A stretch of DNA of 64,000 nucleotides from the NCBI GenBank assembly GCA_002070605.1, contig MWDO01000005.1:1-64000 (forward strand), written 5' to 3'. Below the pieces are notes generated by a model. That model saw only the letters and a program-made list of their open reading frames with translations, was not told where the DNA came from and made no database searches. Positions 34,598-52,719 of the stretch are shown piece after piece; within the stretch, counting starts at the first letter, position 1; every line of letters begins with the position of its first letter. Position numbers and translations under genes: made by a program. Origin of the DNA: Spirochaetes bacterium ADurb.Bin133. Its GTDB lineage: Bacteria > Spirochaetota > GWE2-31-10 > MWDO01.

Positions 34598-35035
34598 ATG
34601 AAGAAACTTAATGCGTTTTTATCTCTAGCCGTTATTATCGCTATGCTTAGCGTAGGTTGTACAAGCGGCGGAGAGACGAAGAAAAAAGCTAGCGAAGCCG
34701 ATCCTAGAGTGGGATTTGAAGTTAAAGGCGACAAGGTGATTTTCTCATTGCACACAGCCGTTTACGGCGGACAGATATTGGACGAGATTGAGAGCGTAAC
34801 GGTAGCCGGCGAATTCAACGGCTGGGATACCGCCGCAGCAGATTGGCAAGCGTCGGACGACGACGGCGACGGAATATGGACTTTAGAGAAGACCTTAGCC
34901 GAAGCTCCTTGCGGGTCTAAGTTTAAATTTGTTGTGAACCAAGTCGATTGGATGCAACCTCCAACGGAGATTGACAAAAAATATTTGACCGACGACGGAT
35001 TTGGCGGATTTAATTTAGTTTTAGCTTGCGAATAA
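34598..35035 (+). CDS. glycogen-binding-like surface lipoprotein
   Basis: 145 aa. Lipoprotein signal with lipobox LSVGC (Cys21), then a short Lys-rich linker and one domain of about 100 residues resembling CBM48 / AMPK-beta glycogen-binding modules: VTVAGEFNGWD, DDDGDGIWTLEKTL, FKFVVNQVDWMQPP and DGFGGFNLVL. The aromatic residues at GW, VDW and the end are where such modules hold alpha-glucan. First gene of the locus, with a strong promoter and Shine-Dalgarno and its own terminator, so it may be made in excess over the downstream genes. Confidence 0.72.
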   Translation: MKKLNAFLSLAVIIAMLSVGCTSGGETKKKASEADPRVGFEVKGDKVIFSLHTAVYGGQILDEIESVTVAGEFNGWDTAAADWQASDDDGDGIWTLEKTLAEAPCGSKFKFVVNQVDWMQPPTEIDKKYLTDDGFGGFNLVLACE

Positions 35036-35045
35036 TGATTTAAAA

Positions 35046-35085
35046 AAATTGGTAAGGGTTGTATAATCTTTGCCAATTTTTTTTT
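35046..35085 (+). terminator. intrinsic terminator
   Basis: AATTGGTAAGG pairs with CTTTGCCAATT (with G-U pairs) around a 10-base loop, followed by T(7). It lies between the first two lipoprotein genes and may attenuate read-through. Confidence 0.7.
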
Positions 35086-35107
35086 AAATTTTTAATAGGA
35101 GGTAATG

Positions 35108-35695
35108 ATGAAGAGGATTGTGAATTTGTTTCAAATTTTAACTCTTTCTTTGATTATAGTTTTGACTTCTTGTCAAGTATTTACGAAAGACGGCGACATG
35201 ATGTATGATTATAACGGGGTTTACGTTTTGGAAGCTCCGGTAACAAATCCTTCTTTTACCAAGGAAGAGATATCTAACAGAGTGGCAAAGAGAGACGACG
35301 GCGTATGGATATTGGCTGATTTAGATAAATCCGTATGGTTTACCGGCGGGATTGTTATGGATTATTTCGGATATCCTAACTGGACTCAAACTCCAAACGG
35401 AGTCGCGATGGATCCTATAGGATCTTTTGGAAGTAAGACTGTGTACGGTTTTTTTATATCAAATGAAGATATAGAGTCGTTGGCGGGTAAGGTCAGCGAT
35501 TCGGATTGTATCAAACAGTATGGAGTCCCAAAAGGTTGTTTGGCTTTTAAATTTAAAACAGACGGAGCGTGGACTGGGCAGTTTGCTTGCGACGAGGGGA
35601 CGCCCTATCACTTAAAGGGATCGTCCGGTCCTTTTATCAACTGCGTATTAGATTTAACAAAGCCGGACGCAGACCCTCCATATTCGCCGAATTAA
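35108..35695 (+). CDS. lipoprotein of the alpha-glucan locus
   Basis: 195 aa from the second of two adjacent ATGs, 5 bp after AGGAGG. The signal ends in lipobox VLTSC. The mature part is rich in Trp and Gly (DLDKSVWFTGGIVMDYFGYPNW, DGAWTGQFACDEG) and has four further cysteines that may form disulfides. I recognise no family. Its position between a glycogen-binding-like lipoprotein and the fused barrel protein suggests a surface role in glucan capture. Confidence 0.6.
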   Translation: MKRIVNLFQILTLSLIIVLTSCQVFTKDGDMMYDYNGVYVLEAPVTNPSFTKEEISNRVAKRDDGVWILADLDKSVWFTGGIVMDYFGYPNWTQTPNGVAMDPIGSFGSKTVYGFFISNEDIESLAGKVSDSDCIKQYGVPKGCLAFKFKTDGAWTGQFACDEGTPYHLKGSSGPFINCVLDLTKPDADPPYSPN

Positions 35696-35750
35696 TAGTT
35701 CGGGGCGAATTTGATAAAATATAACTATTTAAGGTATTAGAGGAGGAAAA

Positions 35751-38648
35751 ATGAAAGCAAAATTAGCGCTTATAAGTATAGCGATACTTTTTATAATATC
35801 AGTTTTTAATATTAACGCTAAAGTTTCTTATGAGAAGGGAGCCGACGGCGCTTGGTATGCGATAGTTACCAATTCGAGCTATAAGGATATCGCTCAATTG
35901 AATATTATCGGCACTTTTATTAAATGGGAAAAACCGGGCGTTCCGATGACCAGAAACGCCGAGGGGAATTGGGAAGCAAGGATTAAGATGGATACTCCAA
36001 AGGTTATCTACAAATTCTACAATCCCGCGATAGAAGGGGACGCCGCTTATTGGGACGATCCGGAGAACGACGATAAAACGGCTAATCCGTTTGGTTCGTT
36101 CGACTGGGTATTGAGAAGACCTAAAGGCGATCCTAGCGCGGCTAGCGGCGGAACAACTTCGGGAAAAGTAGCCGGTCCTTGCGATACTATATGGTATGAA
36201 AAGGGAGACGACGGCGCCTGGTACGCGGTAGTTACCAATAAAACGTATAAAGACGTCGCTCAATTGAATATTATCGGCACTTTTATTAAATGGGAAAAAC
36301 CGGGCGTTCCGATGACCAGAAACGCCGAGGGGAATTGGGAAGCAAGAATCAAGATGGATACTCCGAAAGTTATCTATAAGTTCTTCAATCCGGCGGTCGA
36401 AGGGGACGCCGCTTATTGGGACGATACGGCGAATCCGGACAAAACGGCCAATCCTTTTGGTTCGTTCGATTGGGTATTGAGAAGACCTAAAGCGGACGCG
36501 GCGGCTACGGCCGATGCGGCTGAAGAAGACGACGAAGAGTATAATCCGAGAGTGGGACTTTGGTCGAGAACCTACTATTTTAACACTATAAAGAGCGATT
36601 TGACTTACAAAATTCAAAAAGACGACGACGGCGCCATAGACGCTGAAAAAAGCGGACTCAAAAATAGCGACGATTACCTGAAAGCTAACAATACGAGAAT
36701 ATGGCTAAACGCCGGAGAGAGCGTTTCTACTTTGAGCGACGATCAGAAAACTCCGTATAGAGTATGGTACGGCGGCGCGACTTTCTACACAAGCGCTACG
36801 ATTAAAGTTCACGGTAAGATGGCTAAAAATTTTGTCGTCGATCTCGAGTGGAACGTTCAAAATAAGTGGAGTTGGGAATACGATAAATATTGGGAAGGAA
36901 CCAGCCATGCGGCGAGAGAAGCTTTCTTAACGAAAGCGGCTCAGGAGGGCGCAAGCAAAGGTTTTGAGATATTTTTCGCTACAGCTAAGTCTACTTATCA
37001 CGATCAATTGGCTTTTAGTTTTGAATATCCCGATATAGACGCCAGAATTGGTATATTCGGATGTAAGTATTTCAAGTCTAAAGATCCTATGAAACTTGTA
37101 GTAGGCGATACGGTAGGAGATAAGGATATCGACGCTAGGAATCTTGAATTTTATATTCACCCGACGGTTGTTCCGGGGTTGGATATAAACGTAGGTTTTG
37201 GATCTACTTCCAAAAAAGATAAAAAATGGATGATATATGCGAATGCGAACTACAACGTGCTAAAACAGGGCAAATATAACATAGGATTGGTGCAGTATCT
37301 ATCGTCGTACTCGCCCGAAGCTGTCTCTATGTTTAATAACGGCGTTTACGTAACTTCTTTATACGGAGTACTCAAACCGATAGACGGTTTGACCGTTACG
37401 GCTCAATACGCTATTCAATATCACACAAGGTTTATGAATACTTTTTATAAAGACGGCGTATTGTATCACGTAAGAGAGGACGACGATAACGGAGAAAAAG
37501 GGGTGTTGGCTAAAGGATACGATTTCTTCGCTAACTCCGCGATATATTTGAAAGCCGAATATGTAAAGACCAACTTTTTCAAAATCGGTTACGCTTTTAT
37601 AGGGGCGGGAGCTCAGTTTAACGGAGGAATGTCGAAAGATTCTCCGATTACGACTTATAAGAACGACGATTTTAATTCGGGATTTGCGACTCCAAACGAA
37701 ACGAACTATCATATGTCCGGCAACGCCGTAGGCAATATGAGAAACGTTATAGATTTTTCTATAAATCCTATAAGAGAAACTCCGGCTCTATTAACCGTTA
37801 TGTACGGTCATGAATTGTCGATATTCGACTTATACAGCCCGGCGATGGACGCTCCGTATCTTAAAGCAGATACTACTTCTAAAGACGAATACGCCAAACA
37901 TAAGGAAAAATTTAGAATTCTGAATGTGTTCAAACCGGCGATTCAGTCAAAATTTAAAGCCGGTAAAGCCGAAATGAAAGTAGACTTGGGATTTGATCTG
38001 TCGCTAATGGTTAAACACGATAACGATATTAATAGAGGATGGGGAACAGAGGACGCTTCGGCTAAGCCTGATAGCGAAATTGGAAGAACTTACCAAACCG
38101 GAGCGTTTTTTACGTTCGATAGAGCGTTTGTTTCTTTAGAAGTGAGCGGAATTTCCGACGTATTGAAGAAAGTTAACCTTGATTATACTTTAAAATTTGT
38201 ATATTACGACGGTTACTGGGAGACAAGTACGGCAAAATATGACGCAAAGTATATGAATATGATACAATGGAGAAAATTTATTAACCAATTGCTAGTTAGT
38301 ATGAAATTCAAACACGATATCTCGCTGGATGCGGGTTTTGTTTTCAGATACTATCACGGCGAGCCGTCTGATAAGTGGACTTTTAACAGCTTAGCTAACA
38401 AAGAGATGCAAAAAGCTTATAATGCGGTTCCCGAGTACTTTAACTGGGGTTTGGCTTTCGGTTTGACTTACGTCATACCTGTTAGATCGATTTTAGAACC
38501 GCAACTGTTTGCTAATATATGTCTCGGATGGGATCCGTTTGATATTGGAGACGCTTCAACCGGAATTAAAAGCGATAGAAGAGAAGACGGTTCGGGACTT
38601 GACGAGCAATCAAGTTACGTTACGATCGGAATCAAATGGGATTTTTAA
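35751..38648 (+). CDS. barrel protein with tandem glycogen-binding-like domains
   Basis: 965 aa. The signal peptide is about residues 1-23. Two near-identical domains follow (about 26-125 and 148-247), with offset exactly 122 residues. Each holds LNIIGTFIKWEKPGVPMTR, GNWEARIKM, YKF and GSFDWVL, as in AMPK-beta/CBM48 glycogen-binding modules. After an Ala/Asp-Glu linker, residues about 265-965 are alternating beta strands with aromatic girdles and a final Phe (YVTIGIKWDF), as in outer-membrane barrels. AGGAGG precedes the ATG. The whole suggests an alpha-glucan-capturing porin. No TonB box or SusC plug is visible, so passive uptake is more likely than TonB-driven. The fusion is unusual. Confidence 0.68.
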   Translation: MKAKLALISIAILFIISVFNINAKVSYEKGADGAWYAIVTNSSYKDIAQLNIIGTFIKWEKPGVPMTRNAEGNWEARIKMDTPKVIYKFYNPAIEGDAAYWDDPENDDKTANPFGSFDWVLRRPKGDPSAASGGTTSGKVAGPCDTIWYEKGDDGAWYAVVTNKTYKDVAQLNIIGTFIKWEKPGVPMTRNAEGNWEARIKMDTPKVIYKFFNPAVEGDAAYWDDTANPDKTANPFGSFDWVLRRPKADAAATADAAEEDDEEYNPRVGLWSRTYYFNTIKSDLTYKIQKDDDGAIDAEKSGLKNSDDYLKANNTRIWLNAGESVSTLSDDQKTPYRVWYGGATFYTSATIKVHGKMAKNFVVDLEWNVQNKWSWEYDKYWEGTSHAAREAFLTKAAQEGASKGFEIFFATAKSTYHDQLAFSFEYPDIDARIGIFGCKYFKSKDPMKLVVGDTVGDKDIDARNLEFYIHPTVVPGLDINVGFGSTSKKDKKWMIYANANYNVLKQGKYNIGLVQYLSSYSPEAVSMFNNGVYVTSLYGVLKPIDGLTVTAQYAIQYHTRFMNTFYKDGVLYHVREDDDNGEKGVLAKGYDFFANSAIYLKAEYVKTNFFKIGYAFIGAGAQFNGGMSKDSPITTYKNDDFNSGFATPNETNYHMSGNAVGNMRNVIDFSINPIRETPALLTVMYGHELSIFDLYSPAMDAPYLKADTTSKDEYAKHKEKFRILNVFKPAIQSKFKAGKAEMKVDLGFDLSLMVKHDNDINRGWGTEDASAKPDSEIGRTYQTGAFFTFDRAFVSLEVSGISDVLKKVNLDYTLKFVYYDGYWETSTAKYDAKYMNMIQWRKFINQLLVSMKFKHDISLDAGFVFRYYHGEPSDKWTFNSLANKEMQKAYNAVPEYFNWGLAFGLTYVIPVRSILEPQLFANICLGWDPFDIGDASTGIKSDRREDGSGLDEQSSYVTIGIKWDF

Positions 38649-38682
38649 GATATAGCGTAATATATAGTAAAAGGAGGTTATA

Positions 38683-40626
38683 ATGAATAAGAATAAAAAA
38701 ATTGCGATGTTGTTTTTAATAATCGCGTCTCTTGTTGGAGCGTTGTTATTAACTAGCTGCGCCGCGGATTTGCAGGGAAAAGATAAAAATAGCAAGTTGC
38801 TTAAGATTGAATTCAGCATTGGGAGATTAGGCGGAGCTCTTTCGACTGCAAAGGTTAATGAAATTAACGATATTCCCGGTAATTTAAGCTCGTTTGAATT
38901 TAGACCGATTGCTTCTCCTGCAAGTAAAATTGAGGTTAATAGCTCGACTTCAGGATTAATCGATTATTTGGGGAATTTAAATTGGAGAGTAAACGTTAAG
39001 GATGCGGAGTTAAATACGTTTGACATTAATGTAACGTCGGAGAGCGGCGAGGTTAATGCGTACTCTTTTAAAGTCAATACGGCGTTAACAATTAATTCTT
39101 TTTCTATTGAGTTATCCGGGAGATGGAAGGACGCCGTAGTTGAAGAAACGGACAATAGAGATAAAATGATTTCTCCGGCCGGAGATATCGACGTCCCGAT
39201 GGAAATATCGGCTGAAAATTGGAGCTCGTTTTTAGCTTCTGAAAAAGCGTTCTTAAACAGATATTACGAGGCGATATCGGGCGGCGTTGGTTATAGATTT
39301 AAACAAACTAATAAATATAACGATTGGGTTTCCATAGCAAGATTTTTTAACGGCGAATTTGCCGCTTATGGGGCTATAAAAGATAATAAGTTTGCAAAAG
39401 GTTTGAAAATTAGTTCTACTATAAGAATTGATTTGTCAAACGACGTTTCTGTAGCAAAGTTGAAAAATGCGCTTACAAAATTTGAATACGTCGGAGATAC
39501 TATTTATATCGAAGGTAATAAGCCCGTATCGGAAAGCGTTAGCGTTCAAGAAAGCGGAGTTTCAAGGGTCAATTTTTTTAGAGATAGCGAAGTTGACTCG
39601 TCCGCAGACGCCATAGCGGTTGCCGTTTATAAAAATTCTGTAGTTTACAGTTTGAAGAGTATAGATGGGACTGTAAAAAAATACAGGGTTTATGCAAATT
39701 ACGAAAACACGACAAACTATACGGAAAAAGAGATATATCAGCATATAGCGGTAACGCCTTTTGGGATAACTTTTATAATTACGGTAGACGATCCCAACGA
39801 CGATAATTATTACGTTAGAGGCGATAGTAATTTCTTGAAATCGCAGTTTAATATTAGCGCTTCAGATACCGGCAATGCGTCGTGGAATACTTCTTTAGGC
39901 GATATGGGTAAAATGAAATTGTTATCCGGTAAGTGGAGAGGGAAATATCTGAGAGGTTTTAATATTTATAAGCCGAACGATGCAAAGTATAATAAAATGT
40001 GTTTTCTTGCGGTTTATAAGGATATTGGCAACGTGAACAACGCGGTATCAAAAGGCGAGTTGCCGTATAAAGACAATATTTTATGGGGAAGATATAAGAG
40101 TTCCTGCGACTTTGCTCAAAGCGATTATATAATATTCCCTCAATTATACGCCAGAGGCGACATAAGCGGAGTTATATTTGAAGCCAGACAAGAGATGGAG
40201 CTAGTTAACGTTGGGACGGATTCAAATGGCAAGAAAGTTTATTATACTAATTCGCTTGCTTGCGTCGATATTCCTGCCGGAGACGAACTGGCGACTACAT
40301 ATAACGATAATAAGTTTGCTTCCTCTGAAAGCGCCGGTTTGAGCGTATCCAGATGGAAGTATGGAGCCGGAGATACCGCCGACGCAAACGCATGGTTCTT
40401 AAACGGGGCTTTCGATTTTTGCCCGCTTGTTGATAATGCCGCCGTTGAGTACGGAGTATGGGAATCAACTATTGCAAAAGAAAGCGGGCCTAACTTTGGT
40501 AATGTCTTTACTACAGGAAAACATTATGTTTTTATGTTGAAAGATCCTGTTGGTTCGTCTCCAAAAGCAAAAATAATTGAAAGCGATACGGCGATTGTAG
40601 TATCACAGTCAGATATTGATGATTAA
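38683..40626 (+). CDS. large lipoprotein of unknown function
   Basis: 647 aa, 34 bp after the barrel gene, with an AGGAGG site. The lipobox is LLTSC (Cys25). The sequence is beta-rich, probably several Ig-like domains: a first at about 35-110 (SSFEFRPIASPASKIEVNSS), a second at about 110-170, then a long C-terminal region with many aromatic residues. No catalytic motif is recognised. By context it may be a surface glucan-binding or scaffold protein, but this is inference only. Confidence 0.6.
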   Translation: MNKNKKIAMLFLIIASLVGALLLTSCAADLQGKDKNSKLLKIEFSIGRLGGALSTAKVNEINDIPGNLSSFEFRPIASPASKIEVNSSTSGLIDYLGNLNWRVNVKDAELNTFDINVTSESGEVNAYSFKVNTALTINSFSIELSGRWKDAVVEETDNRDKMISPAGDIDVPMEISAENWSSFLASEKAFLNRYYEAISGGVGYRFKQTNKYNDWVSIARFFNGEFAAYGAIKDNKFAKGLKISSTIRIDLSNDVSVAKLKNALTKFEYVGDTIYIEGNKPVSESVSVQESGVSRVNFFRDSEVDSSADAIAVAVYKNSVVYSLKSIDGTVKKYRVYANYENTTNYTEKEIYQHIAVTPFGITFIITVDDPNDDNYYVRGDSNFLKSQFNISASDTGNASWNTSLGDMGKMKLLSGKWRGKYLRGFNIYKPNDAKYNKMCFLAVYKDIGNVNNAVSKGELPYKDNILWGRYKSSCDFAQSDYIIFPQLYARGDISGVIFEARQEMELVNVGTDSNGKKVYYTNSLACVDIPAGDELATTYNDNKFASSESAGLSVSRWKYGAGDTADANAWFLNGAFDFCPLVDNAAVEYGVWESTIAKESGPNFGNVFTTGKHYVFMLKDPVGSSPKAKIIESDTAIVVSQSDIDD

Positions 40627-40715
40627 TATAAAAAAAAGCTTGATTTTTTTATAGAAAGTTATATAGTGAAAAGAGGGTGTATCCCTTTATAAAATAAACA
40701 AAAGGAGATTTGATT

Positions 40716-41744
<1,029 letters not shown>

Positions 41745-41835: not shown

Positions 41836-43623
41836 ATGGGATTTGAAATGAAAAAAAATAAAATATTTATTTTTATTTACATATTATTGATTTTGAGTGT
41901 TATGGTAATTTTTGAATTTGCTTTAAGAGCTTCAAACTTTGGAATTAATACAAATTTATTTATTTATTTAAAAGACATAAAATATTATGTTATGAATAAA
42001 TCATTCATAAATAAATACTACTCGCATTCGAAAAAAACATTATCTGAGCAAGAAAAGGTATTATTTAAAAAAGATAAAGAAAGAAATGTTAGAAGAGGTT
42101 TTGTACTTGGCGGTTCAACTGCTGAAGGTTTTCCATATTATTCTAATAACAGTTACTCTAAAATATTGGAAAACGCGCTTAATTATTCAAGTAATGATAT
42201 TATTAAATATGAAATACACAATCTTGGATTTAGCGCAATGTCTAGTTATTATGTTGCTGACATAGGCAAAAAGCTTTTGAAATATCGCCCGGATTTTTTA
42301 ATAATATATTCTGGCCATAATGAGTATTATGGGACTATAACGGCTAAAAATGGTACTTCTCATATAAAGAATAAAATATATCTATATCTAAAAGAATTTA
42401 AAATTGTTCAGTTGTTACTGAAAATTTTAAATATAAATTACAAAGTAGACGTCGAAGAAACGTTGATGGAATCGCAATTTGACGATCAAATAAATGAGTA
42501 TGATGAAGAAATTGATAGGGATGTTGCGCACAATTTTATAAAAAATATTAATAATGTAGTAAAAATGTATAGCAAAAGGAGTATCCCTGTTTTTATAATA
42601 GATCCAATATCGAATATTATCGATATGCCGCCATTTGAAAGAAATAAAGATGAAGAGTATTTACTGAAAATTAAGCATTTTGAAGACGTTATTAATAATG
42701 GTAATAAAGTCGAAATAGAAAAAATATTCAAGCAAGAAAGTTTAAATAATAACATAAGAAAAGATTCTAGTTTAATTTATTTATATGCAAGAGCCGGAGA
42801 AATATTAGGCGATAATTCAGAAGACATTGAAAAAAGATATTTAAACGCAAAAGACTTTGATAATATTCCTTTTAGAGTTAGAAGCTCAATAAATTTAAAA
42901 TTGAAAGAGTACATAAAAGGAAATGAAAATAATAAAAATTTATTTTATGTAAATCTGTATGATGAATTAAAAAATAAATATGGATACAAAATATTTTCTA
43001 ATCAGATATTTTGCGATCACCTACATTTTAACGAACAAGGCAATATTTTACTTGCTTTTAAAATAATTGAAAAAATGAGCGAGTTTTATAAGATTAGTAA
43101 TGAAAAATTAAATTATTTTTTTAATGAAAATAGCGGTAATATATACAAAAAAATGTTTTATTCTCCGTTATCTCAGTACATTTCATATAAGAAAATTGAT
43201 AATATAATAAATACAACATTGTTTAAAAATCAATTAATTTTATACAAAAATAATCCATTATTAAAGCATAATAATCCAATCGTGGAAAATACAGAACTAA
43301 TGAATAAAATAATAAATATTGATCAAAAATATCTATTTTCATTTTATTTAAAATATTTATTTGAAAATAATGAATATGATAAATATATTGAAACGGTAAA
43401 TTCAATGGATATATTGTTCCCTGGGTATTATAAAAATTATATTCTTTTTGCGCAGTATTTGATTTTAAAACAAGATTATAATAAAGCGAGAAGATATTTA
43501 GCTATGGCATATATACTGTCAAATAAAGATAAAAAAATAAAAAAAGAAATTTTGAATATGTATAAATTTAACATAGAGGAAGATATTAAAAATTATTTTG
43601 AGGAAATTATATCCGTATTATGA
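41836..43623 (+). CDS. membrane-anchored SGNH/GDSL hydrolase-like protein
   Basis: 595 aa. One N-terminal membrane helix (about 8-30). The SGNH-like domain has the block I Ser in FVLGGSTAEGFPY, the block II Gly in NLGFSAMSSYY, GHNEYYG in place of GxND (block III), and the catalytic Asp-His in CDHLHFNEQG. The C-terminal 150 residues are helical, repeat-like. Such proteins often act as acyl-esterases on glycans. It is very AT-rich in codon use compared with the glucan genes on both sides. The start could also be the ATG at 41848. Confidence 0.72.
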   Translation: MGFEMKKNKIFIFIYILLILSVMVIFEFALRASNFGINTNLFIYLKDIKYYVMNKSFINKYYSHSKKTLSEQEKVLFKKDKERNVRRGFVLGGSTAEGFPYYSNNSYSKILENALNYSSNDIIKYEIHNLGFSAMSSYYVADIGKKLLKYRPDFLIIYSGHNEYYGTITAKNGTSHIKNKIYLYLKEFKIVQLLLKILNINYKVDVEETLMESQFDDQINEYDEEIDRDVAHNFIKNINNVVKMYSKRSIPVFIIDPISNIIDMPPFERNKDEEYLLKIKHFEDVINNGNKVEIEKIFKQESLNNNIRKDSSLIYLYARAGEILGDNSEDIEKRYLNAKDFDNIPFRVRSSINLKLKEYIKGNENNKNLFYVNLYDELKNKYGYKIFSNQIFCDHLHFNEQGNILLAFKIIEKMSEFYKISNEKLNYFFNENSGNIYKKMFYSPLSQYISYKKIDNIINTTLFKNQLILYKNNPLLKHNNPIVENTELMNKIINIDQKYLFSFYLKYLFENNEYDKYIETVNSMDILFPGYYKNYILFAQYLILKQDYNKARRYLAMAYILSNKDKKIKKEILNMYKFNIEEDIKNYFEEIISVL

Positions 43624-44177
43624 AAGGAATAAAAATAATCATTTATGAAATAATCTTTTTTTCGATTCTGATGGCAATAATAAATTCTTGTTATAAAAGG
43701 GATGAAAAACCAAGCGATGTTTTGAATATTATTTATAAATTAGAATTAAAAAAAAAATATAAAAATATGGAAAAATATTTTTATAACGTTGAATTTAGAG
43801 ATATTAAAACCGGAGAATTTATATTTAATTCAAGAGATCAATTTATTGATGCAATAAAAAAAGAAGGAAAAGTGTACGGCGCATTTGAATATTCGAGAAA
43901 AGGACTATTATATCATAAAGAATTAATTGATAAAATGATTATTGAATCAAACGACGAGTTAAATAAAAAGTATTTGATAAATTATTATATTGCAGATAGT
44001 AGTATGTATGTAAAATATTTAATAAAAAATAAAAAAGAAGATATTTTGTATTATATTAATGGTTATACTGTTTTTATTTTTATAAAACATGATAGTAATT
44101 TAAAAATATTATTTACTACAAATATGGGCGTAATAAAAAAAGACGATACGGAAAAAAGCATAGAGGAGAAAAAATGA
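43620..44177 (+). CDS. lipoprotein, paralogue of the next gene
   Basis: 185 aa, overlapping the SGNH stop by 4 bp (ATGA). The signal has lipobox IINSC. It shares with the next protein the pattern KPS(D/E)(V/L)L(N/E)(I/M)IYKLE, YNVEF / YNIDF and LFTTNM / LTTNM, so the two are tandem paralogues. I recognise no family. AT-rich like its neighbours. Confidence 0.6.
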   Translation: MKGIKIIIYEIIFFSILMAIINSCYKRDEKPSDVLNIIYKLELKKKYKNMEKYFYNVEFRDIKTGEFIFNSRDQFIDAIKKEGKVYGAFEYSRKGLLYHKELIDKMIIESNDELNKKYLINYYIADSSMYVKYLIKNKKEDILYYINGYTVFIFIKHDSNLKILFTTNMGVIKKDDTEKSIEEKK

Positions 44178-44692
44178 AAAAAATATTATTTTTAGTTTTT
44201 ATTCTAACTTTTTTATTTTCTTGTAGTGAGAACAGAAAAGTAAAGAAACCAAGCGAATTGTTAGAAATGATTTATAAACTTGAAAAAAAAGGCGATTATG
44301 AGAGCATCAAAAGTTATATTTATAATATTGACTTTAAACAAGATGGGGTAAATCTTACATATAAGTCGGTAGATATGATAATTGACGGTATAAAAACAAA
44401 AAAGCCAGTTAATTTATTTGCCTATTCTCCAAATACCTGCCTAATCCATTCAAAATATGTCGATAAGATGTCTCAAAGGGGTAACGAGTTTTTAATAAAT
44501 AAATACTTAAAAGATATATTTAATTCAGACGAATATATATTTAAATTGGCCGCAACAGATCCAGATAAAATTCTTGTGTATGAAGAGGGATTTGCCGCAT
44601 TCGTGTTTATTGAAATTAAAAATGAAATAAAATTAGTATTAACGACTAATATGACAGACGTTTCTGTAGATAAAAAGTATCGAAATCAATAA
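44174..44692 (+). CDS. lipoprotein, tandem paralogue
   Basis: 172 aa, overlapping the previous gene by 4 bp. Lipobox LFSC. KKPSELLEMIYKLEKKGDYESI and KLVLTTNMTDVS match its upstream paralogue. Together with the SGNH protein the three genes form a tightly overlapping unit that may have entered the locus as a block. Confidence 0.6.
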   Translation: MKKILFLVFILTFLFSCSENRKVKKPSELLEMIYKLEKKGDYESIKSYIYNIDFKQDGVNLTYKSVDMIIDGIKTKKPVNLFAYSPNTCLIHSKYVDKMSQRGNEFLINKYLKDIFNSDEYIFKLAATDPDKILVYEEGFAAFVFIEIKNEIKLVLTTNMTDVSVDKKYRNQ

Positions 44693-44773: not shown

Positions 44774-47584
44774 ATGAAAAAGAATATTACAAAATTATTC
44801 TTATTGTTAGTAGTTTCAGCCTTTTTTAGCTTTAATTGCACTGTTCCGACTAATAATGGCGAAAACGGAGGCGGAGGAACTACTGTTATACCGCCAAACA
44901 CTTTGATAGTTCATTATCAAAGAAACGCGGGAGATTATGAAAATTATACGTTATGGTTATGGCATGATACTACTTTTGCATCTGTCGCAGGCTGGCCTGA
45001 AGGACTGGATTGGGATAGCAAAGATGATTTTGGCGCAGTTTTTAAGGTACCATTAAAAACTTCAGCCGAACAAGTAGGATTTGTTCCGGTTAATAAAACT
45101 ATTGGAGACGATAGTAAAGACGCTGGAGATCATGTTTTTCAATTCGTTTCATTATTTAAAGAAATATGGGTGTTCCAGGGAGACGCTAATTGTTATATAA
45201 GCAAGGATAAAGAAAAGGTTGAAGGTATTATTGGCGGTTATATTAGTAGCGAGACTGAAATGGTGTTAAAATTTGCCGAGGTTACGGCATTAACGCCGGA
45301 AGAGCTTGTTATTGTTGATAAAAATAATAATCCAATTACGATAAGTAGCATTGCGAATACAGGAATTGGAGTATTTAAGATTACTATACCAACAAAAGAT
45401 CCTGTTGCCGACGGTCCTTACTCCGTTTCTTATGGAGGGAAAACTATAGTCGTTAAAGTGTCGCCGTTTATGTTGGAAAAATATACATACGACGGTAACG
45501 ATCTTGGACCTACATATAACAGTTCAAATGGTTCTACAACTTTTAAATTATGGAGTCCAACGGCTTCAGATGTGAAAATCGTATTTTATGATAAAATTAA
45601 TCAAGCTACCAAATTAGATAATGAAATAACTATGAGTTACAATGCTCTAAATGGATTATGGAGTAAAACCGTTAATCCTGCTGATATTGGAGTTACGGAT
45701 TTGAAAGGATATTTTTATCAATATAAAGTTACAAACAATGGAGTTGAAAAAATATGTCTTGATCCTTATGCTAAATCTATGGCAGAATTTTATGTTGGAA
45801 CAGGCGGTACCGTAAGTAGCTCGGCTCCAGACAAAGATATTATCGGTAAAGCCGCTATTATAGATCTTGCAGATACAGGAACTGTTTCTGATTACGCTCC
45901 TTTACCAGTTGATTGGAAAAGGGAAGATGTAGTAATCTACGAAGTTCATGTTAGAGATTTTACCTCATATTTTGGAGTTAATCCATCGGGCGCCTATCCG
46001 TCTGAAGTTAATAAACCAACTTCAAAACTTGGCACTTATAAAGCGTTTATTGAGAATCTTGACTATATAAAGAATATGGGATATACTCACATACAATTTT
46101 TGCCTGTTATGAATTATTTTTACGGAGATGAGTCTAACAAAGAGCTAGAAACAACGCCTAAAGGTACTGCAAATAATTATAACTGGGGTTTTGATCCTCA
46201 TCATTATTTTACCCCTGAAGGTATGTACGCCACAGATTCAAAAGATCCTATTGTTAGAGTTAAAGAATTGAAGGAATTAATTCAAGCGGTACATGACAAA
46301 GGTATGGGCGTAATACTAGACGTTGTATATACGCATATGTCCGGCGCTCATTTTCTTGCCGATATAGTGCCTGAATACTATTTCTTTATGCAAAACGGTC
46401 AATATGTAGGAGCATTTGGTAATAACCTTGCTACGACAAGAACAATGTCTAAAAAACTAATGATAGATTCATTACTTTATTGGACTTCAGAATATAAGGT
46501 AGATGGTTTTAGACATGATATGATGGGCGATGGCGATCATAAAGCGATTATGGAAGCTTACGATATGGTTGCCGCAGTTAATCCCAAAACAATATTTATT
46601 GGAGAAGGATGGACTACTTTTACAGGGGAAAACGACGGAGCTTATGGAGCCGACCAAAACTCAATGAACGAGATGAACGATGGTGCGGAAAGAGTTGCGG
46701 TTTTTTCTGATGAATTTAGAAATTTAATGAAATCAGGATTTGGGGCGGAGGGTTCGCCAATGTTTATTAGCGGTGGCGCTGTTGAGTTATTGAAAGTTTT
46801 TAATAATGTTAAAGGACAACCAAGTAATTTTAATAATGCTTCTCACTCAAAACCGACTTTAAAGACTGCTAACGATCCGGGGCAGACTGTACCTTATATA
46901 GCGGCTCACGATAATATGACGCTCTTTGATATTATATCAAGACAAACAAAAGCTAAACCTGATCTTTCTGCCGATCTTATTCATAGAAGAATTAGAATTG
47001 GAAATTTTATGTTGTCAATTACTCAAGGTGTGGTATTCTTTCACGCCGGACAAGAACTTGGAAGAACTAAACAGTATCTCGGAACGGATGCCGATCAGGG
47101 ACCAAAAATTACCGAAGTTAAGTATTCGGATGGAACGATATTGAAATATGTTCATGATTCTTACGATTCATCCGACGCTATAAATCAGATTAACTGGGGA
47201 AATATTGTCGAAGGTAAACCCGGTAGAAAAACTATGTTATATACAAAGGGATTGATTGCTCTTAGAAAATCTACTACGGCTTTTAGACAAGGAACAAGAT
47301 TATTGACTAATAGCAATGTCAAGCAAATAAATTTTGTTGATCAAAAAGCAAACGATCTTGTAATAGGTTTTAGCGCAAAAGGGACAGACGCGACTTATTA
47401 TGTATTTGTTAATACTGATTTGGTTAAGAGAAGCGCTAATTTAACTGTGGATATAACAAGCGGAGAAGTGTTAGTTGATGAGAACGAAGCTGGTATTTTA
47501 CCAATATCAACTCCGTCGGGATTTACGCTAACTGCTGATAAAATTGAAGTAGAACCCTTAACGGGCGTAATAATAAAAATGTAA
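44774..47584 (+). CDS. pulA: surface pullulanase lipoprotein (GH13)
   Basis: 936 aa type I pullulanase hydrolysing alpha-1,6 branches. The lipobox Cys is in FSFNC. A Gly-rich linker is followed by a CBM41-like domain (about 42-150, IVHYQRNAGDYENYTLWLW), a bacterial Ig-like stretch, a CBM48 at about 250-345 (TTFKLWSPTASDVKIVFYD), and the GH13 barrel with the type I signature YNWGFDP. Catalytic residues by motif are Asp582 (GFRHD), Glu611 (GEGW) and Asp713 (AHDN). The beta C-domain ends the protein. It has its own Shine-Dalgarno (AGGAGG) and terminator. Confidence 0.9.
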   Translation: MKKNITKLFLLLVVSAFFSFNCTVPTNNGENGGGGTTVIPPNTLIVHYQRNAGDYENYTLWLWHDTTFASVAGWPEGLDWDSKDDFGAVFKVPLKTSAEQVGFVPVNKTIGDDSKDAGDHVFQFVSLFKEIWVFQGDANCYISKDKEKVEGIIGGYISSETEMVLKFAEVTALTPEELVIVDKNNNPITISSIANTGIGVFKITIPTKDPVADGPYSVSYGGKTIVVKVSPFMLEKYTYDGNDLGPTYNSSNGSTTFKLWSPTASDVKIVFYDKINQATKLDNEITMSYNALNGLWSKTVNPADIGVTDLKGYFYQYKVTNNGVEKICLDPYAKSMAEFYVGTGGTVSSSAPDKDIIGKAAIIDLADTGTVSDYAPLPVDWKREDVVIYEVHVRDFTSYFGVNPSGAYPSEVNKPTSKLGTYKAFIENLDYIKNMGYTHIQFLPVMNYFYGDESNKELETTPKGTANNYNWGFDPHHYFTPEGMYATDSKDPIVRVKELKELIQAVHDKGMGVILDVVYTHMSGAHFLADIVPEYYFFMQNGQYVGAFGNNLATTRTMSKKLMIDSLLYWTSEYKVDGFRHDMMGDGDHKAIMEAYDMVAAVNPKTIFIGEGWTTFTGENDGAYGADQNSMNEMNDGAERVAVFSDEFRNLMKSGFGAEGSPMFISGGAVELLKVFNNVKGQPSNFNNASHSKPTLKTANDPGQTVPYIAAHDNMTLFDIISRQTKAKPDLSADLIHRRIRIGNFMLSITQGVVFFHAGQELGRTKQYLGTDADQGPKITEVKYSDGTILKYVHDSYDSSDAINQINWGNIVEGKPGRKTMLYTKGLIALRKSTTAFRQGTRLLTNSNVKQINFVDQKANDLVIGFSAKGTDATYYVFVNTDLVKRSANLTVDITSGEVLVDENEAGILPISTPSGFTLTADKIEVEPLTGVIIKM

Positions 47585-47593
47585 AACATCTAA

Positions 47594-47623: not shown

Positions 47624-47636
47624 ATGTAATCCATTG

Positions 47637-47680
47637 TTTTTTTTTGGGGGGGGACGGGGGAAAATAAATTGACACATATG
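47637..47680. repeat. solitary degenerate left end of the repeat element
   Basis: T(9)G(8) followed by GGGAAAATAAATTGACACATATG matches the left border of the family without the outer CCGTCGG. It is the only trace of the element inside the alpha-glucan locus. Confidence 0.55.
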
Positions 47681-47699
47681 ATGTTAGGATATTTTACAA

Positions 47700-47732
47700 A
47701 TTCAAATCAAAATTTATTTTTTCGATTTGAAT
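47700..47732 (+). promoter_or_regulatory. inverted repeat in the leader of the GH13 gene
   Basis: ATTCAAATC (47700-47708) and GATTTGAAT (47724-47732) form a perfect 9-bp inverted repeat 28 bp before the ATG. It could be an operator or a leader hairpin. Confidence 0.45.
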
Positions 47733-47760
47733 TAAAAAAATATAAAACAAAGGAGATTTT

Positions 47761-50700
47761 ATGAAGAAATATTTAGTTTATGTATTATTGGCGTTATTGA
47801 TATGTTTTGTAACGTGTACGCAGGATTCGTTGAAAGATCCGACAACGAACGACGTCAAAGCGACGACGACAACTAGCGTCGAGGCGACGACAACTACGGG
47901 AGCTACAACCACTACCACGACTTTACCTCAATATCTGCCATATTTTGAACCGGCGGGAGGATTATATAAGAATTCTGTAACTGTGAAAATCAAAAGCAAT
48001 CTGCCTGATACGGAGATTTATTATACGGACGATGGTTCTACGCCAAATACCTCTTCGATGAAATATTCAGAGCCGATATTGATTTCTTCGCCTAAATTAT
48101 TGCGAACAATGAGCGTTTCTAACGGTACAGAGGTTCATTATGCAATGAGTATGTTTGACATTGACGATACTCCCGACTTAACGTCGCATAAAGAATCTCC
48201 TAATTGGAATGATCAAATTATTTATTTTTTAATGCTTGACAGATTTTATAATGGAGATACAAATAATGACGATCAAGGAGTCGGCGTTAATGGGATGGTA
48301 GAAGGAAAGTTTAATGGCGGCGATTTAGTGGGATTGAAAAGCAAACTCCAGTACATAAAAGATTTGGGAGCTACGGCGATATGGATTACTCCTCCGGTTA
48401 AGAACCAATGGTCCGACGGTAATTACACCGGATATCATGGTTATTGGACGTCAAATTTTAGAGATGTTGATCCGCATTTCGGAACGATAGAAGATTATAA
48501 AAATATGGTAAAAGCGGCTCACGATCTTGGATTGTATGTTATACAGGATATAGTCCTTAATCATACGGGGGATTATTTTTATATGACTTCTATGCCATCT
48601 TCATATAACTATTCAAAATTTTTATGGGGAAAAAACTCCGGCTCGCTTCCAAGTTTTGCTCCGGAGCAATTGCCGTGGTCTTTTAATGATATAAGTTTTA
48701 AAAATCCCAATAGATTAACTGAGGATGAATATAATTTCTTTTCTTTTTATCATTGGACGCCGGGTATTACCGATTATCTTAATGAAGAACAGATTTTTAA
48801 TTATCAAATGAGCAATCTTGACGATATAAATACTGAAAATGTGGTTGTAAGAAATTTATTAAAAGGCTATTTTAGATATTGGATAGATAAAGTAGATGTT
48901 GACGGCTATAGAATAGATACGGTAAAATATATACCTCCGGAATATTTTGAAGATTTTAGTAATTCTAAGGAAGAAGGGAATCTAGGAATTAGAGAATACG
49001 CGAAGCAAAAAGGTAAAAACGATTTTATTTTGTTTGGAGAAGCCTGGGATACTGAAGATAAAAATTGCGTGATTTATACTAAATCCGAAGATGGAACGCC
49101 GCGTATGGACTCATTAATATACTTTCCTCTGACTTTTGCAATTAGAGATTGTTTTTCTAATGGAAAGTCGACAAAAAGTATAGAAGACATACTGAATAAT
49201 AGATACAAGGCGGGATATTTAAATCCAGATAAATTGGTAACTTTTATTGATAATCATGATATTGCTAGGTTATATGAATCTCTCCCGGCTAGTTTAGTCA
49301 AGTCTGCTTATGCAATAATTATGACAATAACCGGGATTCCTCAAATATATTATGGAAGCGAACAAGGATTTGTAGAACCAAGAAGCGCTATGTTTAACGG
49401 CGGCTATTCGATTCCAGGACAGACAAATAGCGAAGATAAGTTTCATGTTTCTGGAGATTGGTATAACTATTTTAAAGATCTAATTAGTTTAAGAAAAAAT
49501 AATAGGGTTTTCAGATATAATCAATTGGAAATGATAGAATCGTCAAGTTCAGGCGCCGGATTATTATCTTACAGATTGACAGAAAAAGATAATTCTGGAA
49601 ATCTAGTAAAAGGTATAGGACATGAAGCGCTAGTAATAATTAATACGTCAACAAATACTAAGCTATTGGATGTAGGATCTGGTTTTGCCGGAGGAGATAT
49701 ATTAGAAATTAAGGAACCCTATGTTGGAAGTATGTCGAATACAATTAAGGTTGGATTTAACGGTAGAATAACTCAAGAAATTCCCGGTCAGTCTTATGGA
49801 ATATATATTTTGTCGGAAAAAGGAACGCCTCCTACTCAAGGATCTGAATTTATACAAATTAATAGCAGTTATGAAAATGTAATTAATGAATTAAGCATGA
49901 AAATTGAAGGAACTGTATCTAATCCGCCAGCTACTATTAGATTGTTCTTTGATAACGATATCAACGATTACTTAACGATAGACGCTACAACGGAAAATTG
50001 GTCTAAAACAATAAATGTAGAATTTTTACTATCAAATGGCCATCATACTATAAAGGCAATAAGACATTCAAATGAAGTTGATAAGATCGCCTATTCTAAT
50101 ACAGTTGAATTTGATTTAATAAAACCATATATTGAAGTTGTAAATAAGAGCGATCCGGCTTTAGATAACAAAGGTCCAGCAGGGTATAATTATAAGAATC
50201 CAACAGATGGCACATATAAAAACCAAACAGATATTCAAAATATAAAAATTTTAAGAGCTGGAGCAGACTTAAAGATAGAATTACAGATGAATATTATTTC
50301 TCGAACGTGGAATCCTACAGTAAATCCATTTGATCACGTTTTGTTTAGCGTTTTTCTAATAGATAGCGATAATACAACGGGGTGCGCCGCTCATCCTAAA
50401 CATAACTATAATATTCCAAATGGAAATAAATGGGACTATATGTTTAAAGCTGAAGGATGGAAAACTACCATGTTCAATTCTATAGGCGCCGATTCGACGA
50501 CAGACGGCGAGGCGTTAAGTTATGGTCCTACGGCAGAAGTTAATTGGGATGACGATATGCAAACAGAAAAAGTTGGAGGAACCATAACATTTATTTTACC
50601 TTCTGCGGCTTTTGGAAGTCCCGATAATCTGACTGGATGGAAAATATATATTAATACTTGGGATATGGATATGGGTAAATTAAGAGAATTGACTGCAGAT

Positions 50701-50784
50701 GGCGCAGCTCATAAGTTTGGAGGAGGAGATGGGACTGTAGACCCTCTGTTAATGGATGAAACAGATATTATTGATCTAATGTAG
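47761..50784 (+). CDS. surface GH13 alpha-amylase-like lipoprotein
   Basis: 1007 aa. Lipobox FVTC (Cys19) and a Thr-rich tether (about 25-57). A chitobiase-type Ig-like domain at about 60-130 has YYTDDGSTPNTSS. The GH13 barrel spans about 150-560, with DIVLNHTG, Asp386 (GYRID), Glu427 (FGEAWD) and Asp500 (IDNHD). A beta C-domain and an Ig-like segment follow. The last 180 residues (DPALDNKGPAGYNY, YINTWDMDMG) resemble the C-terminal binding module of glucodextranase. Product specificity cannot be told. Its first 56 codons are nearly the same DNA as those of the next gene. Confidence 0.87.
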   Translation: MKKYLVYVLLALLICFVTCTQDSLKDPTTNDVKATTTTSVEATTTTGATTTTTTLPQYLPYFEPAGGLYKNSVTVKIKSNLPDTEIYYTDDGSTPNTSSMKYSEPILISSPKLLRTMSVSNGTEVHYAMSMFDIDDTPDLTSHKESPNWNDQIIYFLMLDRFYNGDTNNDDQGVGVNGMVEGKFNGGDLVGLKSKLQYIKDLGATAIWITPPVKNQWSDGNYTGYHGYWTSNFRDVDPHFGTIEDYKNMVKAAHDLGLYVIQDIVLNHTGDYFYMTSMPSSYNYSKFLWGKNSGSLPSFAPEQLPWSFNDISFKNPNRLTEDEYNFFSFYHWTPGITDYLNEEQIFNYQMSNLDDINTENVVVRNLLKGYFRYWIDKVDVDGYRIDTVKYIPPEYFEDFSNSKEEGNLGIREYAKQKGKNDFILFGEAWDTEDKNCVIYTKSEDGTPRMDSLIYFPLTFAIRDCFSNGKSTKSIEDILNNRYKAGYLNPDKLVTFIDNHDIARLYESLPASLVKSAYAIIMTITGIPQIYYGSEQGFVEPRSAMFNGGYSIPGQTNSEDKFHVSGDWYNYFKDLISLRKNNRVFRYNQLEMIESSSSGAGLLSYRLTEKDNSGNLVKGIGHEALVIINTSTNTKLLDVGSGFAGGDILEIKEPYVGSMSNTIKVGFNGRITQEIPGQSYGIYILSEKGTPPTQGSEFIQINSSYENVINELSMKIEGTVSNPPATIRLFFDNDINDYLTIDATTENWSKTINVEFLLSNGHHTIKAIRHSNEVDKIAYSNTVEFDLIKPYIEVVNKSDPALDNKGPAGYNYKNPTDGTYKNQTDIQNIKILRAGADLKIELQMNIISRTWNPTVNPFDHVLFSVFLIDSDNTTGCAAHPKHNYNIPNGNKWDYMFKAEGWKTTMFNSIGADSTTDGEALSYGPTAEVNWDDDMQTEKVGGTITFILPSAAFGSPDNLTGWKIYINTWDMDMGKLRELTADGAAHKFGGGDGTVDPLLMDETDIIDLM

Positions 50785-50801
50785 ATGTAAAGATATGTAT
50801 A

Positions 50802-50840
50802 TTAGGGAAGATGAATAATTCATCTTCCTAATTATTTTTT
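50802..50840 (+). terminator. intrinsic terminator between the GH13 genes
   Basis: GGAAGATGAA pairs with TTCATCTTCC, followed by ATTATTTTTTT. Confidence 0.82.
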
Positions 50841-50853
50841 TAAGGAGATAAAA

Positions 50854-52719
50854 ATGAAGAAAAATTATTACCCTTATTTAGTTTATGTATTATTGGCGTT
50901 ATTGATATGTTTTGTATCGTGTACGCAGGATTCGCCGAAAGATCCGACAACGAACGACGAGACAACGACGACAACTAGCGTCGAGGCAACAACGACAACT
51001 ACGGGAACTACAACCACTACCACGATCCCGGGGACTTTATCTGAAGCGAGTTTGGTAAACGGACCGGAAGATTGGAGAGATCAAGTCATATATTTTATGA
51101 TTACAGACAGATTTAAAGACGGAGATACTGGAAATAATGAAACGAGGTTTAGAGATAACAATCCGGCAACTCCTTTACATAATCCGGCAGATCATAAGAA
51201 ATATCATGGCGGGGATTTGAAGGGTATAATGGATAATGTCGGCTATTTGACCGATCTGGGAGTTAACTCTATCTGGATAACGCCCGTCGTTTACAATGTG
51301 AGGGAGGATGATGGATACACCGGATATCATGGTTATTGGGCGTGGGATATGACGATGATGGATCCGCATCTTATTCCTAACGATCTATCAACAGATAAAA
51401 ACAGAGGAATTAATTTTTATAAACATTTTGTAGATACGATGCACGCTAATAATATATACGTTATACAGGATATTGTTCTCAATCATATGGGTAATCTGTT
51501 TTTATACAAAATTGGCGGGAAAGAAAATTGGAATCCGACATACAAAGCTACCGGCTATGGAGAAGCCGCTCTTCTATGGATCGAAGAGTCGTCTCATGCG
51601 GGAAGCGCCTGGATTGATATAGGATTGAGAAGAAAGCCGCCGGCTCCGTTTGATTCTCCATCGTTTTATAATTTATGCGGGACTTTATCCGATTCATATC
51701 CGTTATTGGGAGATTTATCCGGATTGGACGATCTTAAAACGACTTCGCCCGACGTTAGAACTGTTTTAAAAAATATCTATATAGACTGGATAAAATATGC
51801 CGGTATCGACGGATTTAGAATTGATACGGTTAAACATATAGAGACAGATTTTTTTGAGGATTTTAATCTTGCCGTGAGAAATTATGTCAAGGGGAATAAC
51901 CCAAATAAAAAATTTATTCAGTTTGGCGAATATTTTGGAACTACGCATAGCGTAATGAAGGACTATACGACCGGAAACAAAATGGATTCTCTTTTGAATT
52001 TTGAGTTATATTACGCAATGAATAATGTCTTTAGAACCTATTCTACTAATGGAACCCTTTATGCGACTAACAAATTGACAAAAGAATTAAATAATAGATC
52101 TGTCTTGAGAGATACCCCTATATCGGATGGAGGCGCGGGATTGTCAGCCGCGGATGCCGTTGTTAATTTTATTGACAATCACGACGTTGCAAGATATTTA
52201 AATGCTCCCGGACATAATACTACCACATTAAAAAGCGCTCTAGCGTATATATTAACTACTAAGGGAATTCCTTGTATATATTACGGGACTGAAAAGGATC
52301 TAAAAGCTTCGAGCGCTTCGGCAGAACCGGGACGAATAGATATGCCGAATTTTGATACGACCGGAGATACTTACAATTTCTTGAAAGATATGATTAAAGT
52401 AAGAAAAGACAACGTTGCGCTTAGAAGAGGCGAAATTAAAGTAATAAAGGATTCTGCAAATGCCGGAATATTTGCCTTTTCGAGATATACGGGAGCAGCG
52501 TCGGAGAATATTTATGTTTTCTTTAACACTGCAAAAGAGGATTTGGCGGATGATGCGATTTACGATTCGAGCGAGGTTGATTTGCTAACAAAAGACGAAA
52601 CGTTAACTAAGATATATCCTCCCGGTTTTGAAGAGATATCTGTAATGCAGGACGCTACCGGCGATTATGTAAAAATTAATTTAGACGCTTATAGTTTTAA
52701 AATATTTAAAAAGAAATAG
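50854..52719 (+). CDS. surface GH13 alpha-amylase-like lipoprotein
   Basis: 621 aa. Lipobox FVSC (Cys23) and a Thr-rich tether that nearly duplicates the previous gene, then directly a GH13 barrel. WRDQVIYFMITDRFKDGD, GYHGYWAWDM and DIVLNHMG are followed by Asp324 (GFRID), Glu359 (FGEYFG) and Asp444 (IDNHD). A short beta C-domain ends at FKIFKK. It lacks the Ig-like and glucodextranase-type modules of its neighbour. It probably cuts alpha-1,4 glucans at the cell surface. AAGGAG precedes the ATG. Confidence 0.88.
   Translation: MKKNYYPYLVYVLLALLICFVSCTQDSPKDPTTNDETTTTTSVEATTTTTGTTTTTTIPGTLSEASLVNGPEDWRDQVIYFMITDRFKDGDTGNNETRFRDNNPATPLHNPADHKKYHGGDLKGIMDNVGYLTDLGVNSIWITPVVYNVREDDGYTGYHGYWAWDMTMMDPHLIPNDLSTDKNRGINFYKHFVDTMHANNIYVIQDIVLNHMGNLFLYKIGGKENWNPTYKATGYGEAALLWIEESSHAGSAWIDIGLRRKPPAPFDSPSFYNLCGTLSDSYPLLGDLSGLDDLKTTSPDVRTVLKNIYIDWIKYAGIDGFRIDTVKHIETDFFEDFNLAVRNYVKGNNPNKKFIQFGEYFGTTHSVMKDYTTGNKMDSLLNFELYYAMNNVFRTYSTNGTLYATNKLTKELNNRSVLRDTPISDGGAGLSAADAVVNFIDNHDVARYLNAPGHNTTTLKSALAYILTTKGIPCIYYGTEKDLKASSASAEPGRIDMPNFDTTGDTYNFLKDMIKVRKDNVALRRGEIKVIKDSANAGIFAFSRYTGAASENIYVFFNTAKEDLADDAIYDSSEVDLLTKDETLTKIYPPGFEEISVMQDATGDYVKINLDAYSFKIFKKK

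What the first reader, a model, noticed from the sequence alone, without database searches (positions are those of the whole stretch)
34598..52719. A surface alpha-glucan system without SusC/SusD
About 18 kb encode a glycogen-binding-like lipoprotein, other surface lipoproteins, a barrel fused to two glycogen-binding-like domains, a starch-binding-like Thr-tethered lipoprotein, a CBM41/CBM48 pullulanase and two GH13 lipoproteins. All parts needed to bind, cut and admit starch or glycogen at the surface are present, yet nothing looks like SusC or SusD. It may be an independent solution to the task done by Sus in Bacteroidetes. No regulator or inner-membrane transporter lies in the locus; the orphan solute-binding lipoprotein at 20 kb is one candidate partner.
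Basis: partly seen in the sequence, partly recalled or inferred. Interest (0 to 1): 0.82.

Follow-up and report, generated by a model that had tools for sequence, protein, structure and literature searches.

The report
Spirochaete starch-uptake locus with glycogen-binding barrel
A spirochaete gene cluster appears to bind, cut and import starch or glycogen through a previously undescribed kind of outer-membrane barrel that carries its own glycogen-binding domain, and related clusters occur in many spirochaetes, so this phylum seems to have its own answer to a task that gut Bacteroidetes solve with SusC/SusD.

Summary
Eleven co-directional genes (34598-52719) encode a CBM48-like lipoprotein, further lipoproteins, a barrel preceded by two near-identical glycogen-binding (E-set) domains, a CBM41/CBM48 pullulanase and two GH13 lipoproteins. 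The genome (Spirochaetota MAG, 95.6% complete) has no detectable TonB-dependent-receptor barrel, SusD or LamB. The barrel is not a one-off: its architecture recurs across the phylum (33 of 393 genomes, 19 genera). It is followed by a lipoprotein gene in 17 of 18 cases, has GH13 genes within 10 kb in 14 of 17 genomes, and in Treponema lies beside MalEFG. The four glycogen-contact positions of AMPK beta are kept in 20 of 20 relatives. Two AlphaFold models show 24 strands and no TonB plug; the barrel matches nothing in Pfam or PDB sequences. Best reading: lipoprotein enzymes make maltodextrins and this barrel admits them to the periplasm for MalEFG (found on contig C64). Corrections: the barrel's E-sets are probably periplasmic or inside the pore, not on the surface, and the 20-kb solute-binding protein is not needed. 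Transport, surface exposure and binding are all untested.

The parts
34598..35035 (+). P1: 145-aa lipoprotein with a CBM48/glycogen-binding-like domain
   Evidence: Lipobox SVGC; CBM_48 16.2 bits, below cut-off; 48-58% identical relatives beside the barrel gene in several genomes of the order; weak profile match to SusF, E 0.007
35105..35695 (+). P2: 196-aa lipoprotein, variable partner of the barrel
   Evidence: Lipobox LTSC; a lipoprotein lies at this position in relatives but sequence is poorly conserved, 13-18% identity
35751..38648 (+). Outer-membrane beta-barrel protein with two N-terminal E-sets; cleavable signal peptide, C-terminal Phe
   Evidence: Pfam CBM_48; AF2 model with 24 barrel strands; relatives
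35817..36125 (+). E-set (glycogen-binding-like) domain 1 of the barrel protein
   Evidence: AF2 strands; CBM_48 stretch at residues 50-92; 90/103 aa identical to domain 2
36186..36491 (+). E-set (glycogen-binding-like) domain 2 of the barrel protein
   Evidence: relatives have a single E-set
36549..38645 (+). Transmembrane barrel domain, 24 strands in the model, no Pfam family
   Evidence: homologous to the barrel of the phylum-wide family, hhalign 98.7%, E 1.8e-16
38683..40626 (+). P4: 647-aa lipoprotein without detectable relatives in 12 related genomes
   Evidence: Lipobox LTSC; no Pfam/NCBIfam match; own genome only
40710..41744 (+). P5: 344-aa lipoprotein on a poly-Thr tether, GxFxxW-like motif typical of glucan-binding modules
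   Evidence: Lipobox SVAC then poly-Thr; no family or PDB match; assignment as starch-binding is inference
41836..43623 (+). P6: membrane-anchored SGNH/GDSL-type hydrolase, low GC
   Evidence: Weak Lipase_GDSL matches, below cut-off; relatives within 10 kb of the barrel in G004, G095 and G129; GC 0.23
43620..44692 (+). P7 and P8: two paralogous small lipoproteins (43620-44177, 44174-44692), low GC
   Evidence: 33% identical to each other; relatives beside the barrel loci in G004 and G129
44774..47584 (+). Pullulanase lipoprotein: PUD/CBM41 - CBM48 - GH13 - SpuA_C
   Evidence: NCBIfam pullulan_Gpos 790 bits (cut-off 1042) and pulA_typeI 384 (cut-off 504.5); YNWGFD motif and lipobox
47761..50784 (+). 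GH13 alpha-amylase-like lipoprotein with Thr-rich tether, CHB_HEX_C_1/Fn3_assoc and C-terminal Glucodextran_C module
   Evidence: 44% identical over 872 aa to a GH13 lipoprotein near the barrel pair of G380
50854..52719 (+). GH13 alpha-amylase/cyclomaltodextrinase-like lipoprotein with Thr-rich tether
   Evidence: 34% identical to the preceding enzyme in the catalytic part
34510..34538 (+). Candidate promoter upstream of P1 (TTGACT-17-TATAAT, 11 of 12 matches)
   Evidence: consensus match only
35042..35083 (+). Hairpin with 19-bp stem followed by T-rich sequence between P1 and P2; could raise P1 relative to the rest
   Evidence: effect is inference

Best explanation
The locus is the outer-envelope part of an alpha-glucan (starch, glycogen or pullulan) acquisition system of spirochaetes. 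Lipoprotein-anchored pullulanase and GH13 amylases, some on Thr-rich tethers, cut branched alpha-glucan held by CBM-type lipoproteins at the outer membrane. The resulting maltodextrins pass through a wide, unplugged 24-stranded barrel of a family without a name so far. The barrel's N-terminal AMPK-beta/CBM48-type domain, at the periplasmic mouth or in the pore, binds the chain and gives selectivity or pull. A MalE-type protein and MalFG then import the sugar, and cytoplasmic enzymes such as glycogen phosphorylase use it. Shown by computation: gene content, domains, catalytic motifs, conserved glucan-contact positions in the family, conserved linkage across the phylum, no detectable SusC/SusD/LamB, presence of MalEFG and phosphorylase. 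Inferred: surface location of the lipoproteins, transport by the barrel, position and role of the E-set, coupling to MalEFG.
For: Domains. Barrel E-set profile matches AMPK beta-1 glycogen-binding domain 1z0n at E 2e-9; the four contact positions are W 20/20, K 20/20, W or Y 20/20, N 20/20 across the family. Barrel domains of the window's order and of the rest of the phylum are homologous and unlike any Pfam or PDB sequence. GH13 genes within 10 kb in 14 of 17 genomes against about 3-25% expected each (P about 2e-13; 6 of 9 families, P about 9e-5). Next gene a lipoprotein in 17 of 18 cases against 15% background; one carries a CBM26 starch-binding module above cut-off. MalEFG next door in Treponema, complete in T. 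saccharophilum. MalEFG and phosphorylase in the window's own genome. Two of the genomes equal in length the chromosomes of Salinispira pacifica (uses pullulan and starch; PMC4511686) and Spirochaeta caldaria (ferments starch; PMC3739177).
Against: No experiment on any member. The E-sets of the window barrel have Asp where the family has the contact Asn (PFGSFDW), so their binding may be weaker. Three of nine families show no GH13 next to the barrel, and two loci of a genome in the window's own family (L017, L018) carry the core module without GH13 genes in the stretch read. The nearest structures by Foldseek include the polysaccharide exporter AlgE and pilus ushers, all with low TM scores, so the direction of transport is not fixed by structure.
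Confidence: 0.7

Rival explanations
1. The barrel is an exporter of an alpha-glucan-like exopolysaccharide or capsule; the GH13 enzymes trim it and the SGNH protein modifies it.
For: Foldseek lists the alginate exporter AlgE and other export barrels among the nearest, at low TM; an SGNH hydrolase lies in the operon and near three other barrel loci.
Against: No glycosyltransferase or polymerase was recognised in the loci; MalEFG uptake genes and degradative pullulanase/GH13 are the recurring neighbours.
Confidence: 0.08
2. The lipoproteins and enzymes face the periplasm only: the barrel admits maltodextrins produced by other organisms or by secreted enzymes, and the locus enzymes trim them inside, as a maltoporin-type system rather than a surface one.
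For: The E-sets are N-terminal to an even-stranded barrel, hence expected periplasmic; no sorting signal is known for this lineage; the T. saccharophilum pullulanase has no lipobox.
Against: CBM41/CBM48 pullulanase and a Glucodextran_C module suit polymeric substrate; Thr-rich tethers after the lipid suit surface display; S. pacifica grows on pullulan polymer (PMC4511686).
Confidence: 0.2
3. The barrel and its lipoprotein serve starch-granule adhesion, not transport.
For: Conserved glucan-contact positions; CBM26 in a partner lipoprotein.
Against: The glucan-binding domain on the barrel is not on the expected outer face; no other alpha-glucan porin (LamB, SusC) is detectable in this genome, and MalEFG needs one.
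Confidence: 0.02

Closest known systems
Sus (starch utilisation system) of Bacteroides, SusC/SusD/SusE/SusF/SusG
   Same: Co-located outer-membrane barrel, glucan-binding lipoproteins and GH13 lipoproteins; same task. The 145-aa lipoprotein profile has a weak match to SusF (E 0.007).
   Different: No SusC (TonB-dependent plug barrel) and no SusD in locus or genome; the barrel has 24 strands in the models, an N-terminal glycogen-binding domain, and an ABC transporter (MalEFG) as probable inner-membrane partner.
Maltoporin system LamB-MalEFG (plus lipoprotein pullulanase PulA)
   Same: Maltodextrin pore in the outer membrane, MalE/F/G beneath, lipoprotein pullulanase (general knowledge); MalEFG beside the barrel in Treponema.
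   Different: No LamB homologue in the genome; barrel larger, without sequence match to it, and fused to a CBM.
AMPK beta glycogen-binding domain / CBM48 / E-set domains
   Same: N-terminal domain of the barrel matches AMPK beta structures (1z0n E 2e-9) and CBM_48 or AMPK1_CBM above cut-off; contact positions kept in the family.
   Different: Here fused to a membrane barrel rather than to a kinase subunit or an enzyme.
24-stranded usher barrels (FimD, PapC)
   Same: Top Foldseek matches and same modelled strand number.
   Different: TM 0.3-0.5 at best, 7-9% identity, no chaperone or pilus genes in the loci; similarity is of barrel size.

Membership tests
Sus (SusCD-type polysaccharide utilisation locus) | SusC-type TonB-dependent barrel | tested here: not met
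   PF00593 absent from the whole genome; barrel protein has no Plug or TonB-receptor match; Foldseek gives only generic low-TM barrel matches
Sus (SusCD-type polysaccharide utilisation locus) | SusD-type glycan-binding lipoprotein | tested here: not met
   PF07980 absent from the whole genome; no SusD family match in any locus protein scanned
Sus (SusCD-type polysaccharide utilisation locus) | Surface GH13 lipoproteins that degrade starch | tested here: inconclusive
   GH13 lipoproteins with catalytic motifs present; surface location not testable here
Maltoporin (LamB) | LamB family barrel | tested here: not met
   PF02264 absent from the genome
E-set/CBM48/AMPK-GBD glycogen-binding domain | Sequence family membership of the barrel's N-terminal domain | tested here: met
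   CBM_48 25.2 bits over cut-off 22.4; AMPK1_CBM 36.4 over 26.8 in a relative; PDB AMPK beta E 2e-9
E-set/CBM48/AMPK-GBD glycogen-binding domain | Glucan-contact residues W, K, W, N | tested here: inconclusive
   Kept in 20 of 20 members of the wider family, third position W or Y; in the window's own two E-sets the Asn position is Asp
GH13 pullulanase type I | CBM41, CBM48, GH13 catalytic domain, YNWGxD motif | tested here: met
   NCBIfam pullulanase models are the best hits but below their equivalog cut-offs
Spirochaete E-set barrel family (defined here) | N-terminal E-set followed by homologous 24-strand barrel, lipoprotein gene beside it, GH13 nearby | tested here: met
Chaperone-usher barrel | Usher Pfam families and chaperone/pilin genes | tested here: not met
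   No usher family among Pfam hits of the window barrel; one of 19 relatives has a sub-threshold PapC_C hit, E 0.089; no such genes recognised in the loci read

The most novel reading that the evidence does not exclude
A previously undescribed family of 24-stranded, TonB-independent outer-membrane channels in Spirochaetota carries a built-in glycogen-binding domain that acts as a ligand-binding plug or periplasmic ratchet for long maltodextrins: an independent counterpart of SusCD, coupled to MalEFG instead of TonB.
Probability: 0.4. Interest if true: 0.85.

Novelty: new variant of a known kind. Interest (0 to 1): 0.64.

Why it matters
How free-living and gut spirochaetes take up starch and glycogen across their outer membrane is not described in the papers searched here. 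A phylum-wide barrel with its own glycogen-binding domain gives that question a named gene in cultured organisms (T. saccharophilum WP_002703262.1; Salinispira pacifica). It would also be a TonB-free comparison to SusCD, relevant to how large glycans can cross an outer membrane at all.

Tried and rejected
First named-genome scan with the single window barrel found nothing; the alignment found nine loci. The small partner lipoprotein aligns poorly, so homology across the family is not claimed. The 647-aa lipoprotein has no relatives in twelve genomes. The orphan solute-binding lipoprotein at 20 kb was dropped as the main partner once MalEFG was found on C64. The histidine kinase/response regulator downstream (53228-55664) was not taken as the regulator: from the sequences read it is followed by what look like PhoU/Pst-type phosphate genes, which I did not scan. 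I first took the low-GC SGNH cassette for a chance insertion; its recurrence near other barrel loci speaks against that. Literature searches for a description of this system gave nothing; most subscription papers are not held. Foldseek matches were not used to name a family because TM scores are low, about 0.5 at most even when normalised by the smaller target. Occurrence outside Spirochaetota could not be tested properly; the only plasmid-collection match is Treponema.

Full report
What is there. Between 34598 and 52719 eleven ORFs run on the + strand with gaps of at most 177 bp. Nine carry a lipobox. Pfam finds CBM_48 in the barrel protein above its cut-off, the same domain weakly in the first lipoprotein, PUD/CBM41-CBM48-GH13-SpuA_C in the pullulanase, and GH13 in the last two enzymes, the first of which also has a Glucodextran_C module. 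GH13 motifs were found by pattern or are visible in the sequence. The 965-aa barrel protein has a signal peptide, two E-set domains that are 90/103 aa identical to each other, and a C-terminal Phe.

Absences. The genome is a 2.99-Mb MAG, 95.6% complete, of a spirochaete: its nearest named relatives are Spirochaetes GWE1_32_154, GWB1_27_13 and Spirochaetales RGIG6909. It has no detectable TonB-receptor barrel, although 28 of 41 genomes in the relatives set do, no SusD and no LamB. The MAG is incomplete, so each absence carries a small risk.

Relatives. In the same order, the lipoprotein P1, a small lipoprotein and the barrel recur together. In G004 the neighbourhood also holds the pullulanase (55% identical), a GH13, the SGNH protein and small lipoproteins. 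A profile of these barrels finds the E-set at the N-terminus of roughly 630-790-aa proteins throughout the phylum. The barrel part alone of those proteins is homologous to the barrel part of the window's group (hhalign probability 98.7%, E 1.8e-16, over 498 columns to the C-terminal Trp-Asp-Phe). A profile of the barrel part finds 33 of 393 genomes, 19 of 168 genera. The barrel part matches no PDB sequence and no Pfam family convincingly.

Neighbourhood. Of 17 genomes with a readable locus, 14 have a GH13 or pullulanase gene within about 10 kb; the chance for each, from the genome's GH13 count, is 3-25% (P about 2e-13; one per family, 6 of 9, P about 9e-5). The genomes are related, so the per-family figure is the safer one. 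The next gene after the barrel encodes a lipoprotein in 17 of 18 cases against a 15% background; one has a CBM26 starch-binding module above cut-off. In Treponema the locus runs into MalE, MalF and MalG. T. saccharophilum plasmid pTS2 has, in order, 'glycogen-binding domain-containing protein', a small protein with a lipobox, an alpha-amylase family enzyme, maltose SBP, two permeases and another alpha-amylase family enzyme. By exact contig length, G202 is Salinispira pacifica, isolated on pullulan and growing on pullulan, starch and maltose, and G193 is Spirochaeta caldaria, which ferments starch and maltose (PMC4511686, PMC3739177); in S. caldaria no GH13 lies within 10 kb of the barrel.

The glucan-binding domain. 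The family E-set matches the AMPK beta-1 glycogen-binding domain (1z0n, E 2e-9). The residues that contact sugar there (W100, K126, W133, N150 in AMPK beta-1, from general knowledge) align with positions that are W, K, W/Y and N in 20 of 20 members. In the window's own two copies the Asn is Asp.

Structure. AlphaFold2 gives 24 barrel strands for the window protein (pLDDT 65.6, pTM 0.60) and again for the S. caldaria protein (pLDDT 80, pTM 0.69), with the E-set and a short helical linker before the first strand and no plug family. The strand count was made from the listed secondary structure. Foldseek's best matches are usher barrels, which also have 24 strands, and AlgE, all at low TM. An even strand number puts both termini in the periplasm by the usual rule, so the E-set is periplasmic or luminal.

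Inner-membrane step. The genome holds MalE, MalF and MalG on contig C64, best NCBIfam matches in each case although somewhat under the equivalog cut-offs, and a glycogen phosphorylase.

Mechanism. Shown: gene content, conserved linkage, conserved glucan-contact positions in the family, no detectable SusC/SusD/LamB. Inferred: lipoprotein enzymes cut alpha-glucan at the outer membrane; maltodextrins pass the barrel; the E-set binds the chain at the pore's inner mouth or inside it; MalEFG imports. The energy for the outer-membrane step would be diffusion plus capture, since nothing suggests TonB coupling.

Verdict. The system works like Sus, or like LamB-MalEFG plus pullulanase, but it is a member of neither: the defining features were tested and not met. 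It is a new variant of an alpha-glucan utilisation locus built on a barrel family that has no name so far. Surface exposure and transport remain to be tested.

Noticed in passing
window 41836-44692: SGNH/GDSL-type protein and two paralogous small lipoproteins with GC 0.20-0.26 inside an operon of GC 0.35-0.47; relatives of the SGNH protein lie within 10 kb of the E-set barrel in G004, G095 and G129, and in the last two they are the only copies found.
   Followed up: partly
window 35042-35083: Hairpin with a 19-bp stem and T-rich tail between the CBM48 lipoprotein and the rest of the operon; could give the first gene higher expression.
   Followed up: no
L060 10377, L061 10051, L063 8464, L065 7100, L077 7823, L078 6995: The small lipoproteins after the barrel share a short motif right behind the lipidated Cys (roughly C-x3-5-LHN) across several families, although the rest is divergent.
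   Followed up: no
L060, L061, L063 (G064, G380, G244): Two E-set barrels in tandem separated by one small lipoprotein gene, possibly a heteromeric pair.
   Followed up: no
G000 contig C46, about 4.3-9.4 kb: Two very large GH13 proteins (open frames 1152 and 1377 aa) elsewhere in the same genome.
   Followed up: no
G208:C67:75671-77398: E-set barrel gene with two internal TGA codons, either a broken gene or a sequencing error.
   Followed up: no
window 4798-5040, 28424-28795, 60087-60353: Short spurious ORFs between genes share peptide-like stretches (such as RICV, AHMCQ, LTHMR), which suggests a repeated intergenic DNA element.
   Followed up: no
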